Below are positions 49,013-57,596 of a stretch of DNA of 64,000 bases, piece by piece. The stretch covers positions 1 through 64,000 of the forward strand of contig JACQZQ010000119.1 of the NCBI GenBank assembly GCA_016213785.1. Direction: 5' to 3'. This DNA comes from Acidobacteriota bacterium (GTDB lineage: Bacteria; Acidobacteriota; Blastocatellia; Chloracidobacteriales; JADJPF01). Made by a program: the position numbers and the translations under genes. Under the pieces are notes generated by a model, which saw only the letters and a program-made list of their open reading frames with translations, had not been told where the DNA came from and made no database searches. Within the stretch, counting starts at the first letter, position 1, and each line of letters begins with the position of its first letter.

Positions 49013-51964
49013 TTATTTCCTTTTTGGTAATCTTACTGTATCTGATTCTGAAGGAGAAAGGCTATTAGGCATTGAAAGTGTTTTTTCTCTGTAACTACGA
49101 ATAGCAGGAATTATTTCTACCTGCATTTGACTAATGGATTGAAAACGGTTTTGGGGTTCTTTAGCCAAACATTTTTGGATTTTTTCATCAAGTAATTTAA
49201 CTTCTGGGCTAGTACCTGGTAAGTGATACGCTTTACTTAGCATTGTTCCCATTAATTCATAAATTGTTTTCCCTGCAAAAGGTTTACTTCCAGTTAAAGC
49301 TTCAACAATCATCACCCCTAAAGCAAAAATATCTGCACATTCATTAATTTCTTCACCAGAAAATTGTTCTGGTGGCATATAACCAAAAGTCCCCATAATT
49401 GTACCTGGAACAGTTAGACTATTAGCATTATTAGGGTCAACTCTATCTGTAGATTTAACTTTTGCAATACCAAAATCTAGAATTTTTATAGTATTACGTC
49501 CTAACACTTCTGTAATTAATATATTATCTGGCTTTAAGTCTCGATGAATAATGCCTCGTGAATGTGCAAGTTTCATTGCATCTAAAATTTGGTCAAATAA
49601 GTCTGCTACTAAATCTGGAGCTAAAGTTTTATATTGGTTAAGTTTAGCTTTTAGTGTTGTGCCATTAACAAGTTCCATAACTAAATAAGCGCCTTCTGCA
49701 TTTAACTTACCATAATCAAAAATAGCTACAATATTTGGATGGGTAAGTTTTGCTGAAGCTTTAGCCTCACGCTCAAAACGCTTCATTGCTTCTAAATCAC
49801 CAAACATACTTCCTTTAAGTACTTTTATTGCAACATCGCGCCCAAGTCTTAAATCCTTAGCAGAATAAACAGCACCCATTCCACCCTTACCAAGTAATTT
49901 ATTTAATTCATATTTCCCATCTATTACTTTTTCTACAGGTAGGGTTAGCTCTAAAAGGCTATTATCTTCAGAACAAACTTCATCTGTATTATTAAAACAT
50001 TTACCACACTTAGGGCATTCTTTTACTAAATTAATTTTTTGCTCTGTTAATTTTACTAACACTTCTTGCTTAATTTTTTCTTCTTTATCTACTTTTTCTT
50101 TCAAAGATTTATTTTCATAAACTACACCAAGTTGGCTAGCAATAGCTTCTAAAAGCTTTTTATCGCTTTTAGAGTAAGGTTCTTCGGATAGTTTTTCTCC
50201 TAATAAAAGTATACCTACAGTCTCTCGACTACTAGCTACCATTGGAACAATAAGCTGAACCTGCATATTAATTAGCCAGTTTTTTTCTTCTATTGGGAGT
50301 TCTGTTAAAACTTCTAACTCTTTAGCTAATGCTTCACTCTCCATAAAATGAATAAGTTCTGAGTTTGCTAAAATAGGCTTTGTGTGAATTTTATTTCCTA
50401 TAAGATTGCTATCTATAGAATGCCCTAGAGTAAAATCTGTTTTTTCTTGCCCGCGATAAAAGAAATAAATACTTTTAGGATGTAGGACTTCTGTTAGTTT
50501 TTCACTAATTTTAGTAGAAAGTTCTGTAATAGAACTTAATGCCTTAATCTCATCAAGTAAATTTGAGAGTATTTTTTCTCGATTATAAGCAACTCTAAAA
50601 AATTTCTTATCAAGCTCCAAAGCAATATTATTACGATAAACAAAGCTAAAAACAGTTATAGAAATTAAATAAATATATCCTGATTTTAGTGAAAATATTT
50701 CACCTAAAGTAAGATTAGGTTTTAATAATATCACTATAATAATTCCTAAAGCTTCTAAAGCTAATATCATTCGTAAAAAATTTTTTGCAAATAAATATTG
50801 CATCCCCTGACGAATTACAAAATCGATTTCAAATACTTTGTGTCTAATAATTACATAATCAAAAGCAAGTGGAATTATAGTAAGAAAAAGTTCTCCAAAC
50901 CTTGTAAACAAGATATAAGAGCTTGTTGAAACTATATAGCGGTATTCTGAAGAATTAAGTACAAGAGTTGTTAAGTTATTGATTAGTGTAGGTGTAAACC
51001 CAATAACCGAAGCATAAACTAACCACTTTATCCGGCGGCGATCATCGGCTTTGTTTATTAACCTATAATTACGAATAGTCACACTAACTAATAAAATTAG
51101 TGTAATTATAATTAGTAGATCAAAGCTAATATCACGAGCAAAAAGAAAAGTATTATTATTTAGTATAGAGTTTTCAATAGACAAATCTTGCAGATAATAA
51201 ATATTTTTCCATAAAGAAATACCAGCTATTAATGAAGCAAATATATATAAAAAATATTTGCTAAAAGTCCAAAATTTACTTTTAGTAATGTTTTGAGGAA
51301 AGCTGTAATAAACATCATAAGCAAGAGGAAACATTGCTGGGAAAGAAAACCATAATATCAAATGGCAAAGATAATCAAATCCTTGTAAAAAAACTATCAT
51401 AAACCTAGTGCTATTTAGCAGCATAAAAGCACTTAAGACAAACATTGCAATGCTTAAACGTCTAGTCAAAGGCTGATCAGGCTTTAATATACCAATAAAA
51501 AAACCTGAAATAGAAAAAGCTAAACTACATAAGAAATAACTCAACGTTATGCTTAATCTCTCATAGTTTACTATTAGCTTTGTAGGTAACTCAAACTGAT
51601 AAATATCAGACCCGCGAACAATATCTATAGTATAGGTACTATTTGGAGGTATTTTTTGTTTTGCCTGAACAATCGTTACCAAAAGGTCAAAGTTTTTTTG
51701 TACAGATTTATCGCCATTGATGGCAAGGATTTTATCACCTACTTGAAGTTTATTAGGTGTAGGGTTATTGGGGGTTATTTCACTAATAACATAGAAATCT
51801 TCTTTAGAACTATATTTCCAGCCAAAATCTTTTTCATAAGCACCATAGCGAAATATCATGCTAGCTAGAACAACATAAAATCCAAGCATTAAAATAGCTA
51901 AGAAAATTGTTAAAGCAACAAAGTAGTTTTTTTGAAAAAACCCTAATTCTAATTTAGATTCCAT
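49013..51964 (-). CDS. Ser/Thr protein kinase with PDZ, polytopic membrane, GAF and zinc-ribbon regions
   Basis: A 983-residue kinase with an unusual order. TM1 is at about 13-37 and an external PDZ-like domain at about 50-130 (PNKLQVGDKILAINGDK). Seven or eight hydrophobic helices span about 140-440 and a cytoplasmic GAF-like domain about 455-625. A zinc-ribbon CPKCGKCFNNTDEVC lies near 650. The C-terminal Hanks kinase (about 685-955) has GKGGMGAVYSAKD, VAIKVL, HRDLKPDN near residue 805 and DFG in KILDFGIAKV. The catalytic elements look intact, so it should sense envelope or membrane signals. The PDZ-polytopic half resembles that of some sensor histidine kinases, with the output swapped to a Ser/Thr kinase. 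Confidence 0.85.
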   Translation of the reverse strand: MESKLELGFFQKNYFVALTIFLAILMLGFYVVLASMIFRYGAYEKDFGWKYSSKEDFYVISEITPNNPTPNKLQVGDKILAINGDKSVQKNFDLLVTIVQAKQKIPPNSTYTIDIVRGSDIYQFELPTKLIVNYERLSITLSYFLCSLAFSISGFFIGILKPDQPLTRRLSIAMFVLSAFMLLNSTRFMIVFLQGFDYLCHLILWFSFPAMFPLAYDVYYSFPQNITKSKFWTFSKYFLYIFASLIAGISLWKNIYYLQDLSIENSILNNNTFLFARDISFDLLIIITLILLVSVTIRNYRLINKADDRRRIKWLVYASVIGFTPTLINNLTTLVLNSSEYRYIVSTSSYILFTRFGELFLTIIPLAFDYVIIRHKVFEIDFVIRQGMQYLFAKNFLRMILALEALGIIIVILLKPNLTLGEIFSLKSGYIYLISITVFSFVYRNNIALELDKKFFRVAYNREKILSNLLDEIKALSSITELSTKISEKLTEVLHPKSIYFFYRGQEKTDFTLGHSIDSNLIGNKIHTKPILANSELIHFMESEALAKELEVLTELPIEEKNWLINMQVQLIVPMVASSRETVGILLLGEKLSEEPYSKSDKKLLEAIASQLGVVYENKSLKEKVDKEEKIKQEVLVKLTEQKINLVKECPKCGKCFNNTDEVCSEDNSLLELTLPVEKVIDGKYELNKLLGKGGMGAVYSAKDLRLGRDVAIKVLKGSMFGDLEAMKRFEREAKASAKLTHPNIVAIFDYGKLNAEGAYLVMELVNGTTLKAKLNQYKTLAPDLVADLFDQILDAMKLAHSRGIIHRDLKPDNILITEVLGRNTIKILDFGIAKVKSTDRVDPNNANSLTVPGTIMGTFGYMPPEQFSGEEINECADIFALGVMIVEALTGSKPFAGKTIYELMGTMLSKAYHLPGTSPEVKLLDEKIQKCLAKEPQNRFQSISQMQVEIIPAIRSYREKTLSMPNSLSPSESDTVRLPKRK

Positions 51965-53733: not shown

Positions 53734-54195
53734 TTACTTATTACGCTCTTTTAACATTGCCCGAGTTTCGCGATCTACTACACGTTGTTTTTCTGTATCT
53801 CGTTTATCGTAGAGTTTTTTTCCTCGTCCAATACCAACCTCTACTTTAACTCGGTTTTTCTTAAAATATAGCTTAGTTGCTACTAAGGTTAAGCCTTTTT
53901 CCTTAATCTTAACTCCTAGTTTGATAATTTCGCGTTTGTGAAGTAAAAGTTTACGATTACGGGTAGGGTCATGATTTTCTCTATTACCGTGACTGTAGGG
54001 GCTAATATGCGCGTTTAGTAGCCAAGCTTCACCCTCTTTAACTATTACATATGAATCTTTTAGGTTAACCCGACCATCACGAAGAGATTTAACTTCTGTG
54101 CCTGTTAATACTATACCTGCTTCTAAAGTCTCATCAATAAAGTAGTTATGATAGGCTTCTCGATTGCTACTAATAACCTTAAACTTTTCTGTCAT
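53734..54195 (-). CDS. smpB: SsrA-binding protein SmpB
   Basis: A 153-residue SmpB, a partner of tmRNA in trans-translation. It has the family opening VISSNREAYHNYFIDE, then EAGIVLTGTEVKSLRDGRVN and the C-terminal basic tail GRGKKLYDKRDTEKQR, which enters the empty mRNA channel of a stalled ribosome. Length is normal. The tmRNA gene (ssrA) is not visible in the adjoining 165 bases. Confidence 0.95.
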   Translation of the reverse strand: MTEKFKVISSNREAYHNYFIDETLEAGIVLTGTEVKSLRDGRVNLKDSYVIVKEGEAWLLNAHISPYSHGNRENHDPTRNRKLLLHKREIIKLGVKIKEKGLTLVATKLYFKKNRVKVEVGIGRGKKLYDKRDTEKQRVVDRETRAMLKERNK

Positions 54196-54359: not shown

Positions 54360-54575
54360 TTATCTTTGATCATCTGATTTCTTATTATTCTTAGCAGAAG
54401 TACTTTTACCTGGCGCTATTACCCTTTGACCACGAATTACACGTGTTGGGCCGTGAGTAGGAGGGCTACCTTGGCGAATCATCTCAGCAAATAAATCTAC
54501 GTCATAATCACATTCTCGTGCCATTTCTTCTTGGATTCTATGAAGTTCAGTTAAAAACCTTGGTCGTCTGTACAT
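54360..54575 (-). CDS. Small hypothetical protein, antitoxin candidate
   Basis: A 71-residue protein. The N-terminal half is helical (LTELHRIQEEMARECDYDVDLFAEMIRQ) and the C-terminal half is basic and disordered (GQRVIAPGKSTSAKNNKKSDDQR). It begins at the last base of the PIN-domain gene stop, so it is translated with it. Short proteins of this shape next to PIN genes are thought to act as their antitoxins. The order toxin-then-antitoxin is the reverse of classical vapBC. The role is inference. Confidence 0.65.
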   Translation of the reverse strand: MYRRPRFLTELHRIQEEMARECDYDVDLFAEMIRQGSPPTHGPTRVIRGQRVIAPGKSTSAKNNKKSDDQR

Positions 54576-55051
54576 TATCTTTTTCCATCTACTGACTCTG
54601 AAACTAAAAACTCTGGTGTTACAATCTCTGGAACAAAAAAACCTGCGGCAGTATTAAAAAGTTTGATTCGAGCTTTACGATGGACATTTGCAATATGTCC
54701 AAAATTCCAAGTAACAAAAAAATCTATTTTATAAAATGAAGCTAATGCTACATGTAGCGCATCAGCAATATATTTACGATGAAAAATGCCTCGGCTAATA
54801 TAACCTTCTGCTAATATTGCTGCTTCATCAGCAATATCTAGCTTTGGTAATGGTTTAATTAAGTTTAAGTAAGAAGACCTATGAGGTTCACTAAGTCTTT
54901 CTAATTCTCGCTCCACTAATAATGAAACTACTGCATTATAGTTTTGTAGCTCATGCTCCCACCATCTTATGGTTAAATCCCGGCGAAAAGGCTCATCATT
55001 ATCTAAATATGCCCCAACTACAGAGGTTTCTAGATAAAGACTAAGTTTCAC
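54575..55051 (-). CDS. PIN-domain protein (VapC-like toxin candidate)
   Basis: A 158-residue PIN-domain protein starting at GTG with AGGAGG before it; the start overlaps the previous gene's TGA. The first strand reads LYLETSVVGAYLD, with E in the position where most PIN domains have D, and acidic residues follow in VVSLLVERELERL and DADALHV-like ADALHVALASFYKIDFFVTWN. The catalytic acidic cluster is therefore mostly present but altered. It is probably a metal-dependent RNase. It forms a transcriptional unit with the small downstream protein and the upstream protease-like gene. Confidence 0.8.
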   Translation of the reverse strand: MKLSLYLETSVVGAYLDNDEPFRRDLTIRWWEHELQNYNAVVSLLVERELERLSEPHRSSYLNLIKPLPKLDIADEAAILAEGYISRGIFHRKYIADALHVALASFYKIDFFVTWNFGHIANVHRKARIKLFNTAAGFFVPEIVTPEFLVSESVDGKR

Positions 55052-56655
55052 TTAGCCTCCTTTTCTAGTAAAGAAGCCTCTCCAACACGTTTAACTAAAC
55101 CTGTACTTGGAGTTAGAGTTAATTGTAGGCGGCGAAAATCAATTTGGATACGACAATGATATAAAAAATCTCCACCTAAAATTCCTTGTTGCTCAAAACC
55201 TGCTTGTTCATTTATACGTGAAAGATTAAGTATTGGCATACGCATATTCTCGCGTAATAAATCTATAATTTGTACTTTACCTAGCATTAACTTAACATTT
55301 TCTGTAAAACCAGCGGCTCCTATTACTTTAACTGTATCTTTAAGGATTTTGCTTTCCCATTTTTGGGCATCAACTATGTCATGGGAAATTACTGTACTTG
55401 TCGCACCAGAATCAAAAATAAAATTTAAGGTCAATTCATCATTTATTTTGCCTTCTACACTAATTAAACCACTTTCTGTTGTACGAAAAGGAACAACTGT
55501 TGAGTTAGCGGCAGGTGTTACAGTTTCTTTATTCTCTTTAGAATCTTCATCTGGTATAACTAGCTCTAGTTCATTAGCTTTATAGTCCATTGTCATTAAA
55601 AAATTACCTAATAAAGAAAGCCCTAGATAACCATCTGCTATATCTTCAGCTTTAGCAGTAGAAGGAGCATGAACTTTACGAATATAGGTAGGAACAAGAG
55701 AAATTTTTATATCTCCTATTTGCATTTCATCTATTAAACCATAAACTATTGAAAAAGCCCCTTCACCTCCAACAGCACGGGCTTCACCTCCACGAGCAAT
55801 CTCTTTTACCCCTATTTTAGCGGCGGCTTCAGGAGAAATTACACAAAGCCCTGCACCTGTATCAATAACAAATCTAAGTGTTTCCTTACCATTAACTTTT
55901 ACTTGTAAATATGGCCGTCTAAGTTTGATGTCTAGAGGAATACTGCTAGATTTACCACGTACTTGATAAAGATGAGTATTACCTAAATAGCTATAAAACC
56001 TTATTACACCTTCAATTCTTGCTCTACGGTCAATATCAGTTTTAGGGGAATTTTGTAAAAATTGGCGTAGTGCCTCAGATGCTTCCTTAAAAAACTCTTG
56101 CCGTGAAGCAGCACGAGCTAAAATCAACCAATAATCCCCTTCTGATGGGCGAATATAAGTAGCTAGTCTTAGTTTTTGATAGGCTTCAGCAGTACGGCTT
56201 TCATAAAGATCAATTTCTGCACTAGAAGCTAGAGCAAGATCATCACGTTGGTTAAATTGTAGGGCATAAAGCAGTTGATCGCTTGCCCTATCTACATAAC
56301 CTGAACGTAAAAGCGCAGTGCCAACAATAGCACGGGCACGAGCGTTTTTTGTATCTAGCTCTAGAACCTTAATACCTGCTTCAAAGGCAGCATTTAAGTT
56401 TCGTCTTTTTAAGTAAGCCGTTGCTAAACCAATATATGCTTTTACATCTTTAGTGTCTTTACTAATAATTTGTTGGTAAAGGTCTTCTGCAATATCAAAA
56501 TTACCTTTATCCATCTCTTGTTGAGCTTTTCTATGCAGTTTTTCATCACCAGCCGCATAACTTGAGCTTGATGTAAAAAATAATATTAGCACTATTACTA
56601 GGCTAGTGAGTAGATGTGAACTTAGAGAAATGAAAGTTTGGTATTTATCTTTCAT
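55048..56655 (-). CDS. TPR protein with two retropepsin-like aspartyl protease domains
   Basis: A 535-residue exported protein. It has a signal peptide (about 1-35, ending SSYAAG) and TPR-like repeats (about 37-210). The first aspartyl-protease-like domain (about 248-365) has D265-T-G in FVIDTGAGLCVISPEAA, and the second (about 395-530) has D415-S-G in FIFDSGATSTVISH. Each domain also has a flap-like segment and a GGEGAFSIVYG-like or GAAGF turn. Retropepsin-like bacterial enzymes normally act as dimers of single domains, so this is an internal duplication with a TPR scaffold. It overlaps the PIN gene by four bases (GTGA). Confidence 0.85.
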   Translation of the reverse strand: MKDKYQTFISLSSHLLTSLVIVLILFFTSSSSYAAGDEKLHRKAQQEMDKGNFDIAEDLYQQIISKDTKDVKAYIGLATAYLKRRNLNAAFEAGIKVLELDTKNARARAIVGTALLRSGYVDRASDQLLYALQFNQRDDLALASSAEIDLYESRTAEAYQKLRLATYIRPSEGDYWLILARAASRQEFFKEASEALRQFLQNSPKTDIDRRARIEGVIRFYSYLGNTHLYQVRGKSSSIPLDIKLRRPYLQVKVNGKETLRFVIDTGAGLCVISPEAAAKIGVKEIARGGEARAVGGEGAFSIVYGLIDEMQIGDIKISLVPTYIRKVHAPSTAKAEDIADGYLGLSLLGNFLMTMDYKANELELVIPDEDSKENKETVTPAANSTVVPFRTTESGLISVEGKINDELTLNFIFDSGATSTVISHDIVDAQKWESKILKDTVKVIGAAGFTENVKLMLGKVQIIDLLRENMRMPILNLSRINEQAGFEQQGILGGDFLYHCRIQIDFRRLQLTLTPSTGLVKRVGEASLLEKEAK

Positions 56656-56692: not shown

Positions 56693-57361
56693 CTATTTCA
56701 AAATCTCACCAGTCTTATTAGACCACAAAAGTAAATCTAACTCATCAAAATTTATTTCTATTTCTTCAGCAAAATTTCTTAACTTTTCCTCTAGAGCTAT
56801 ATATTTTTTCTTTGTAGTTGGTGGTTTTGGATCATCAATTATTGATAGCTCATGTAAACTACGTAATATATGTTTATCTAATATTGCATACCCAATGTAG
56901 CCAATATTACGCAAAAAATGACTAGCTTCTTTATATCCAATACCTTTAATACCAGGGTTAGCAGCAAAAAAATCTCTACGCTCTTCTTTGTCTTTTAAGC
57001 TTAAGAGTTTTGCCCTTATTTCTAAGTTACAGTGTTCTTTTAAGTAATTGCGCGTATGTATAATATAACGGCTACGTTCACGAGCATAGCGATGAGCACC
57101 AGTAATTGAGTTTAGGATATCTGTTTCAGAACCATTTATTAACACACTACTTACTTTTTGGATGCAATTAAGTCCCATTTTTGCGCTTGCGCCTGCGGTA
57201 AAAATGCAAAAAACTAATTCTTCAAATAATTTAGCATCTGTTGCCTTATGATAAATGGCTTGGAATTCGGCTAAACGAGCCTTAATAGCTGATTGTTTAA
57301 CTAAATAACTTGCTTTTAAGCTATCAATACTAATAGTGATTGGTTGTGCTTTATTAGTCAT
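56693..57361 (-). CDS. ogg: N-glycosylase/DNA lyase (Ogg2-like)
   Basis: A 222-residue HhH-GPD glycosylase of the Ogg2 class, which removes 8-oxoguanine and cleaves the backbone. The helix-hairpin-helix segment reads GIKGIGYKEASHFLRNIGYI, with the catalytic lysine (K) in GYKEAS and the aspartate in ILDKHILR. Length is right for the class. I start at the third in-frame ATG-type codon (MTNKAQP); longer starts at 57370 or a TTG at 57397 are possible but fall in or beyond an inverted repeat at 57367-57388. Confidence 0.85.
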   Translation of the reverse strand: MTNKAQPITISIDSLKASYLVKQSAIKARLAEFQAIYHKATDAKLFEELVFCIFTAGASAKMGLNCIQKVSSVLINGSETDILNSITGAHRYARERSRYIIHTRNYLKEHCNLEIRAKLLSLKDKEERRDFFAANPGIKGIGYKEASHFLRNIGYIGYAILDKHILRSLHELSIIDDPKPPTTKKKYIALEEKLRNFAEEIEINFDELDLLLWSNKTGEILK

Positions 57362-57366
57362 AATAA

Positions 57367-57388
57367 CCATTCTAATTTTATAGAATGG
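57367..57388 (-). promoter_or_regulatory. Inverted repeat at the ogg 5' end
   Basis: A perfect 8-bp dyad CCATTCTA / TAGAATGG around ATTTTA. On the minus strand its 3' arm contains an in-frame ATG at 57370, nine bases before the chosen start. A folded RNA would hide that region, and on DNA it could be an operator. Either possibility is uncertain. Confidence 0.4.
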
Positions 57389-57596
57389 AGGTGTCAAACC
57401 TACAAAATATTTAATATAAAGATTAGGAGATAATAGGATTTTTTAGTCTACACCCTATCTACATCCTAAAAAACTCTATAACTCTATAACTCTACTAGCG
57501 TCTAAGGATGTTGACAGGTAAAGTAAAAAGTCTAGAATTATTTTAAGTATCGACGCTTAAACTAAAATTTTTCAAGTGATTTGAGGTTTTTAACAA

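What the first reader, a model, noticed from the sequence alone, without database searches (positions are those of the whole stretch)
54360..56655. Overlapping operon: exported double-retropepsin TPR protein, PIN RNase and small protein
Three genes are joined by 4-bp (GTGA) and 1-bp overlaps. The first is exported and has two aspartyl protease domains (D265-T-G and D415-S-G) on a TPR scaffold. The second is a cytoplasmic PIN protein with a Glu replacing the usual first Asp, and the third is a 71-residue antitoxin candidate. The toxin-antitoxin order is reversed, and the coupling to a periplasmic protease is unexpected.
Basis: partly seen in the sequence, partly recalled or inferred. Interest (0 to 1): 0.6.

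Follow-up and report, generated by a model that had tools for sequence, protein, structure and literature searches.

The report
Tamed toxin-like RNase, bacterial class-wide
A protein that looks like a bacterial self-poisoning RNA-cutting toxin, together with its small partner protein, appears to have been tamed into a permanent, slowly changing part of nearly every genome examined in one class of bacteria.

Summary
The three overlapping genes are real and belong to a conserved block in class Blastocatellia (Acidobacteriota). The PIN gene is a core gene: 142 of 147 class genomes, 98 of 99 good ones. It lies directly downstream of the protease in 129 of 142 and is more conserved than SmpB in 48 of 52 genomes. 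Two active-site Glu are invariant in 119 of 119 orthologues; of the other two acidic positions at least one is always Asp/Glu. The small gene is homologous to the downstream partner of sporadic VapC-like modules. It is equally universal (142 of 147) and is kept even where it lies away from the PIN gene (37 of 141). This argues against a selfish addiction module and for a domesticated endoribonuclease with an obligate partner. The protease is predicted to be a pepsin-like single-chain pseudo-dimer on TPRs, with a solved Bacteroides relative; nothing ties its mechanism to the PIN protein. RNA cleavage, the target and how the partner acts are inferred, not shown.

The parts
54575..55051 (-). PIN (VapC-fold) protein, predicted endoribonuclease; active-site positions E8, E49, D97, N116
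   Evidence: Pfam PF01850 E 4.7e-4, below cut-off; AF2 model, pLDDT 75.6, nearest Mtb VapC11 and VapC20; orthologue in 142 of 147 class genomes; E8 and E49 invariant in 119 of 119
54360..54575 (-). 71-aa small partner protein: conserved core of about 33 residues and a variable tail; homologous to the downstream partner of sporadic VapC-like modules
   Evidence: no Pfam or NCBIfam hit; hhalign 95.8%, E 6.8e-9 against the partners of paralogous PIN modules; found in 142 of 147 class genomes
55048..56655 (-). exported TPR protein with two clan AA aspartyl protease lobes (D265TG, D415SG), predicted pepsin-like pseudo-dimer
   Evidence: AF2 pLDDT 91.8, pTM 0.87; Foldseek 9iy9 E 2e-18, then full-length bilobal pepsins; VIA Z about 17 over both lobes
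56693..57397 (-). 8-oxoguanine DNA glycosylase (Ogg) gene, 37 bp upstream of the protease gene, probably first gene of the unit
   Evidence: PF22175 E 2e-49, NF002305 above cut-off; upstream in 90 of 119 distinct loci
53734..54195 (-). smpB, next gene downstream on the same strand; a local neighbour, not part of the conserved block
   Evidence: PF01668 E 5.4e-60; directly downstream in 1 of 119 distinct loci, the window itself

Best explanation
The PIN protein and the 71-residue protein form a resident two-part endoribonuclease, taken over from a toxin-first VapC-like module before or early in the history of class Blastocatellia and since inherited vertically. The PIN protein supplies a metal-dependent active site with three acidic side chains (E8, E49 and one of positions 97/116). 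The small protein binds it through its conserved core, where R15 and D25 are kept between this family and the sporadic modules, and either restrains it or fixes its choice of RNA. Both are made all the time and both are needed, so their genes can drift apart without loss. The exported TPR-pepsin shares the transcription unit and the ancestry of the locus, but most likely acts separately in the periplasm. Shown by computation: gene structure, orthology, conservation, fold of the protease, probable fold of the PIN protein, homology of the small protein, co-retention. Inferred: RNA cleavage, binding of the two proteins, and any housekeeping RNA target (tRNA or rRNA by analogy with VapC).
For: PIN gene in 142 of 147 class genomes and 98 of 99 with at least 90% completeness and at most 5% contamination; 56 of 58 relatives. 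Identity to the window PIN is 65-94% and exceeds SmpB identity in 48 of 52 genomes (2 equal, 2 lower; medians 73 and 63.5); dN 0.035, dS 0.736 against the same-genus genome (NG86). Outside the class only matches of 36% identity or less. E8 and E49 invariant in 119 of 119; positions 97/116 are D/N 109, N/D 5, D/D 2, D/H 1, D/S 1, A/E 1, so an acid is never missing from both. Small gene in 142 of 147 genomes; both genes in 141, PIN alone in 1 (G029, contig ends about 80 bp after the PIN gene), small alone in 1 (G338); 104 linked, 37 not. The PIN tree groups the rows of the family codes f2, f3, f7 and f5/f8/f9 together, with supports of 94 to 99. Small protein homologous to the partners of sporadic PIN modules.
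Against: The PIN model is only moderately confident (pLDDT 75.6). N116 in place of Asp could mean weak activity, although other VapC toxins also vary most at the fourth position (PMC10215180, passages). Strict co-retention of the pair is also what a true toxin and antitoxin would show. The tally of unlinked genes may include breaks of draft contigs (G376 clearly so). The reciprocal exchange at 97/116 gives only three independent pairs on supported branches, sign test p 0.25.
Confidence: 0.58

Rival explanations
1. It is a working toxin-antitoxin pair that has become fixed: the PIN protein is a growth-stopping toxin, the small protein its antidote, and addiction keeps both genes.
For: VapC fold; partner homologous to the small proteins beside sporadic modules, some of whose PIN relatives are annotated as VapC family toxins on plasmids; the two genes are kept together in 141 of the 143 genomes that have either.
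Against: Toxins of this kind are expected to be patchy and fast-evolving (recalled, general knowledge), whereas this one is near-universal and more conserved than SmpB. The genes are unlinked in 37 of 141 genomes, which breaks co-transcription. The small protein has no recognised DNA-binding domain.
Confidence: 0.22
2. A three-part system in which the periplasmic protease senses a signal or cleaves something and the PIN nuclease answers in the cytoplasm.
For: Protease directly upstream of PIN in 129 of 142 genomes; 4-bp stop-start overlap in 34 of the 75 named loci with a readable protease frame; both genes confined to the class at the cut-offs used.
Against: The proteins lie on opposite sides of the membrane and the protease shows no membrane domain beyond the apparent signal peptide (by eye). 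In six g6 genomes both genes survive far apart, and in two f2 genomes no protease was found (G011, G012). The protease evolves much faster (median identity 43% against 73%). Ogg and other unrelated genes share the block.
Confidence: 0.12
3. The PIN protein has lost catalysis and acts as an RNA-binding or scaffold protein.
For: The active site differs from the D-E-D-D of VapC: E8 for Asp and N116 for Asp.
Against: E8 and E49 are invariant and at least one of positions 97 and 116 stays acidic in 119 of 119; the same E...D...N pattern is seen in many of the sporadic relatives.
Confidence: 0.08

Closest known systems
VapBC type II toxin-antitoxin modules (Mtb VapBC11, VapC20, VapC51)
   Same: PIN fold in the predicted model, acidic active site, small partner gene next door in most genomes
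   Different: partner gene downstream and without a recognised DNA-binding domain; first acid is Glu and fourth is Asn; class-wide core gene more conserved than SmpB; partner often unlinked
Sporadic toxin-first PIN modules with a 'DPIxEExxxIR' small protein (L076-L095; plasmid relatives annotated VapC family toxin)
   Same: same PIN subfamily (Y-[LI]-E-T at the first position, W-N near the fourth), partner directly downstream, homologous partner core
   Different: 30-38% identity only; sporadic; the block here adds Ogg and protease genes and is inherited with the class
Bacteroides fragilis putative endopeptidase, PDB 9iy9 ('Exported protein')
   Same: exported protein with helical repeats followed by two protease lobes; Z 26.5, 377 residues aligned, model 102-515
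   Different: 20% identity; no information here on its genome context
Pepsin family A1 (chymosin, renin, plasmepsin) and retropepsins A2 (RloA of Pseudomonas, APRc of Rickettsia)
   Same: two-Asp clan AA fold; both lobes superpose on pepsins
   Different: retropepsins are dimers of separate chains (PMC12239564, passages); here both lobes are in one chain behind a TPR domain and each lobe scores with retropepsin-type Pfam models
Protein-only RNase P (HARP, PIN_5)
   Same: a PIN nuclease used as a housekeeping RNase (recalled, and search listing)
   Different: RNase P RNA is present in 19 of 20 relatives, so no replacement is needed

Membership tests
VapBC type II toxin-antitoxin | PIN-fold nuclease | tested here: met
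   PF01850 E 4.7e-4 but under cut-off; Foldseek top hits VapC11 and VapC20, TM about 0.6
VapBC type II toxin-antitoxin | active-site quartet Asp-Glu-Asp-Asp | tested here: not met
   E8, E49, D97, N116 in the window; E/E invariant and 97/116 mostly D/N in 119 orthologues; quartet from PMC10215180 (passages)
VapBC type II toxin-antitoxin | antitoxin with N-terminal DNA-binding motif that represses the operon | tested here: inconclusive
   no Pfam or NCBIfam hit at E up to 1 for the small protein; a short unknown motif cannot be excluded
VapBC type II toxin-antitoxin | the two genes form one operon | tested here: inconclusive
   adjacent in 104 of 141 genomes, not in 37, some of these contig breaks
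VapBC type II toxin-antitoxin | toxin stops growth, partner neutralises it | not testable with these tools
   needs expression experiments
Sporadic toxin-first PIN / DPI-type small protein modules | homologous PIN and homologous downstream partner | tested here: met
   paralogues at 30-38% identity; partner profiles match, 95.8%, E 6.8e-9 over 33 columns
Pepsin-like single-chain aspartic protease | two lobes in one chain, one catalytic Asp each, superposing on bilobal pepsins | tested here: met
   D265 and D415 invariant in 45 of 45; Foldseek about 360 columns on pepsins; VIA Z about 17 over model 231-519. The distance between the two Asp was not measured
Pepsin-like single-chain aspartic protease | membership of Pfam/MEROPS A1 by sequence | tested here: not met
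   hits are PF13650, PF13975 and PF00077, no PF00026 at E up to 1
Protein-only RNase P (HARP) | replaces a missing RNA-based RNase P | tested here: not met
   RF00010 above cut-off in 19 of 20 relatives, the window's genome included
Known anti-phage defence genes (PADLOC) | match of the PIN or small protein to a defence model | tested here: not met
   no hit for either; the protease hits candidate family PDC-M08B, E 3.8e-15

The most novel reading that the evidence does not exclude
The PIN/small pair is a dedicated, probably essential RNA-processing enzyme that exists only in Blastocatellia: a former toxin and antitoxin turned into catalytic and regulatory subunits of a housekeeping ribonuclease that carries out a class-specific RNA maturation or quality-control step.
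Probability: 0.35. Interest if true: 0.78.

Novelty: new variant of a known kind. Interest (0 to 1): 0.6.

Why it matters
Whether chromosomal toxin-antitoxin genes are selfish or useful has long been argued over. Here a toxin-like PIN nuclease and its partner are kept by 142 of 147 genomes of a whole class each, with 141 holding both, evolve more slowly than SmpB, and stay together in the genome even when no longer neighbours. That makes domestication directly testable in a cultured member such as Pyrinomonas methylaliphatogenes (locus L127) or Chloracidobacterium. It also gives a natural experiment, linked against unlinked lineages, for how such a pair is controlled without a shared operon.

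Tried and rejected
1. First idea: the 'antitoxin' had been lost in Chloracidobacterium-like (g6) and many g13 genomes while the PIN gene stayed (suggested, where it was missing downstream in 30 of 136 loci, one of them, L050, a false negative). Rejected by my own test: a whole-genome search found the small gene elsewhere in all 21 of 21 genomes tried, of which 19 lacked it downstream of PIN, and in 142 of 147 class genomes. In g6 genomes it sits 8-9 kb from PIN on the same strand.

2. Replacement of RNase P by the PIN protein (HARP-like): rejected, RNase P RNA present in 19 of 20 relatives.

3. Mobile or phage origin of this copy: no relative confirmed in viral contigs; only three plasmid records with distant relatives.

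4. Sequence search of solved structures with the PIN protein gave only designed pentatricopeptide repeats, a chance match; the fold search was used instead.

5. smpB as part of the block: rejected, downstream in the window only.

6. Statistical support for the reciprocal D/N exchange: Fisher p 8e-9 if rows were independent, but three independent pairs, p 0.25, on the tree; used as suggestive only.

7. Papers: searches found no report of this locus. The held library is open-access only, so this is weak evidence of absence. A 2009 survey of PIN-associated antitoxins (PMC2701414, passages only) did not show a partner of this kind in the passages seen.

Full report
What is there. On the minus strand lie a 535-residue exported TPR protein with two aspartyl protease lobes (55048-56655), a 158-residue PIN protein (54575-55051) and a 71-residue protein (54360-54575), overlapping by 4 bp and 1 bp. 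The 8-oxoguanine glycosylase gene (56693-57397) is 37 bp upstream on the same strand. Pfam and NCBIfam support the protease and glycosylase clearly, the PIN protein weakly (21.2 bits against 23.6), and say nothing about the small protein. No Rfam family or tRNA was found in the window.

Where it comes from. Relatives named by their records are Blastocatellia or Pyrinomonadaceae and unclassified Acidobacteriota (80 loci kept of 142 that encode a relative; one of the 80 is titled Actinomycetota, on a scaffold whose own name reads Acidobacteria).

The PIN gene is a core gene. It was found in 56 of 58 relatives, and in 142 of 147 genomes of the class, 98 of 99 with at least 90% completeness and at most 5% contamination. 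In a phylum sample, 39 of 297 genomes had a match at E up to 1e-15; 7 of these lie outside the class and match at 36% identity or less. The five class genomes without it are G052, G054, G338, G394 and G399. It is single copy in most genomes; where further matches occur those listed are distant paralogues (38% identity or less). Identity to the window protein is 65-94%. SmpB, a universal protein of the same length, is less conserved in 48 of 52 genomes, equal in 2 and more conserved in 2 (medians 73 and 63.5, from identities copied; one SmpB value, G049, is from a partial match). Against the same-genus genome, dN/dS is 0.035/0.736 by NG86. The protease is far less conserved (median 43%; PIN higher in 48 of 48). 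The PIN tree keeps the rows of family codes together (f3 99, f7 95, f5/f8/f9 99, f2 94), as vertical descent would give.

Active site. In VapC the four acids are Asp, Glu, Asp, Asp (PMC10215180, passages). Here they are E8, E49, D97, N116. E8 and E49 are invariant in 119 of 119 distinct sequences (from 136 loci). At 97/116 the states are D/N 109, N/D 5, D/D 2, D/H 1, D/S 1, A/E 1: every sequence keeps an acid at one or both. This looks like exchange of one metal ligand between two positions, but only three independent pairs exist on supported branches and the sign test gives p 0.25. The predicted fold (pLDDT 75.6) is closest to Mtb VapC11 and VapC20, a tRNA- and a sarcin-ricin-loop-cutting toxin (for the match and for VapC20; tRNA for VapC11 from a passage).

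The small protein. Twenty paralogous PIN loci were read. One (L085) gave no readable PIN frame. Twelve showed a small frame of one family directly or closely downstream (the 13 small proteins aligned come from L076-L079, L081-L084, L087-L089, L092 and L095; L088 starts 75 bp downstream and the L087 frame was entered from an internal start). The rest had other or no such frame. Profiles of the window family (22 rows) and of these partners (13 rows) match at 95.8% probability, E 6.8e-9, over 33 columns, with Arg15 and Asp25 invariant in the sporadic set. I first took the small gene to be lost in several lineages, as it is missing downstream in 30 of 136 loci (L050 is a false negative, L057 and L100 run into contig ends). 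A genome search overturned this: 21 of 21 genomes have it, and 142 of 147 class genomes. Both genes are present in 141; PIN alone in G029, whose contig ends about 80 bp after PIN; small alone in G338. They are within 1.5 kb in 104 and further apart in 37, at least one of which (G376) is a contig break. In five g6 genomes with both on one contig read out, and in G013, the two lie 8-9 kb apart on the same strand. Elsewhere the small gene stays with its usual downstream neighbour, such as an HtrA-like protease or a lytic transglycosylase gene. On the PIN tree the linkage state changes at least six times.

The protease. The AF2 model is confident (pLDDT 91.8, pTM 0.87). Foldseek's best match is the Bacteroides fragilis putative endopeptidase 9iy9 (E 2e-18), followed by full-length chymosin, plasmepsin and renin over about 360 columns. 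VIA-align gives 9iy9 Z 26.5 over 377 residues, and pepsins Z about 17 over 240-251 residues spanning model 231-519, so both lobes fit one pepsin in one superposition. D265 and D415 are invariant in 45 of 45. So the two domains probably pair in one chain. By sequence each lobe belongs to the retropepsin-type models, not A1. The protease gene was found in 141 of 147 class genomes, 96 of 99 good ones. In a phylum sample at E up to 1e-40 it was found in 32 of 297, all in the class. It is directly upstream of PIN in 129 of 142, elsewhere in 11, not found in 2. The 4-bp stop-start overlap is present in 34 of the 75 named loci with a readable protease frame.

Most likely working. The pair behaves like a domesticated, two-part ribonuclease: near-universal in the class, slow-evolving, active site kept, partner always kept but free to move. 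A toxin kept only by addiction would not be expected to outdo SmpB in conservation, nor to tolerate separation from its antidote. But a fixed toxin-antitoxin pair is not excluded, since the two genes are never clearly found apart in a genome. No direct evidence bears on the RNA target. The protease and PIN genes share a locus; a shared pathway is possible but unsupported.

Novelty. The parts are of known kinds (PIN/VapC, its toxin-first modules, clan AA protease with TPR). The fixed, class-wide, partner-retaining state is what is new to me. Eight paper searches found no description, in an open-access library.

Noticed in passing
L038:5398-6180 and other loci downstream of the small gene: A gene of about 260 residues with a DUF3881 match (E 2e-10) lies within 1.8 kb downstream of PIN in 70 of 119 distinct loci; function unknown.
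   Followed up: partly
L177:4483-5720, L176:3118-4502: In f2 genomes where the small gene is away from PIN, it overlaps or abuts an HtrA-like protease gene downstream; in g6 genomes a Ser/Thr kinase gene lies upstream.
   Followed up: partly
L064:5046-6182 and other f2 loci: In 8 of 10 f2 rows PIN is followed by a response regulator with a DUF4388 domain instead of the small gene.
   Followed up: no
55048-56655: The C-terminal protease lobe matches the candidate defence family PDC-M08B of PADLOC (E 3.8e-15), probably because that family also holds a clan AA protease domain.
   Followed up: no
49013-51964 (-): 983-residue protein with a C-terminal Ser/Thr kinase domain (PF00069 E 1.4e-48); by eye also a membrane part and PDZ- and GAF-like parts.
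   Followed up: no
L074 and L075 (G056, G053): The two longest PIN branches (0.74, 0.8) are lineages where the small gene is unlinked and the 97/116 pair is D/S or A/E; separation may loosen constraint.
   Followed up: no
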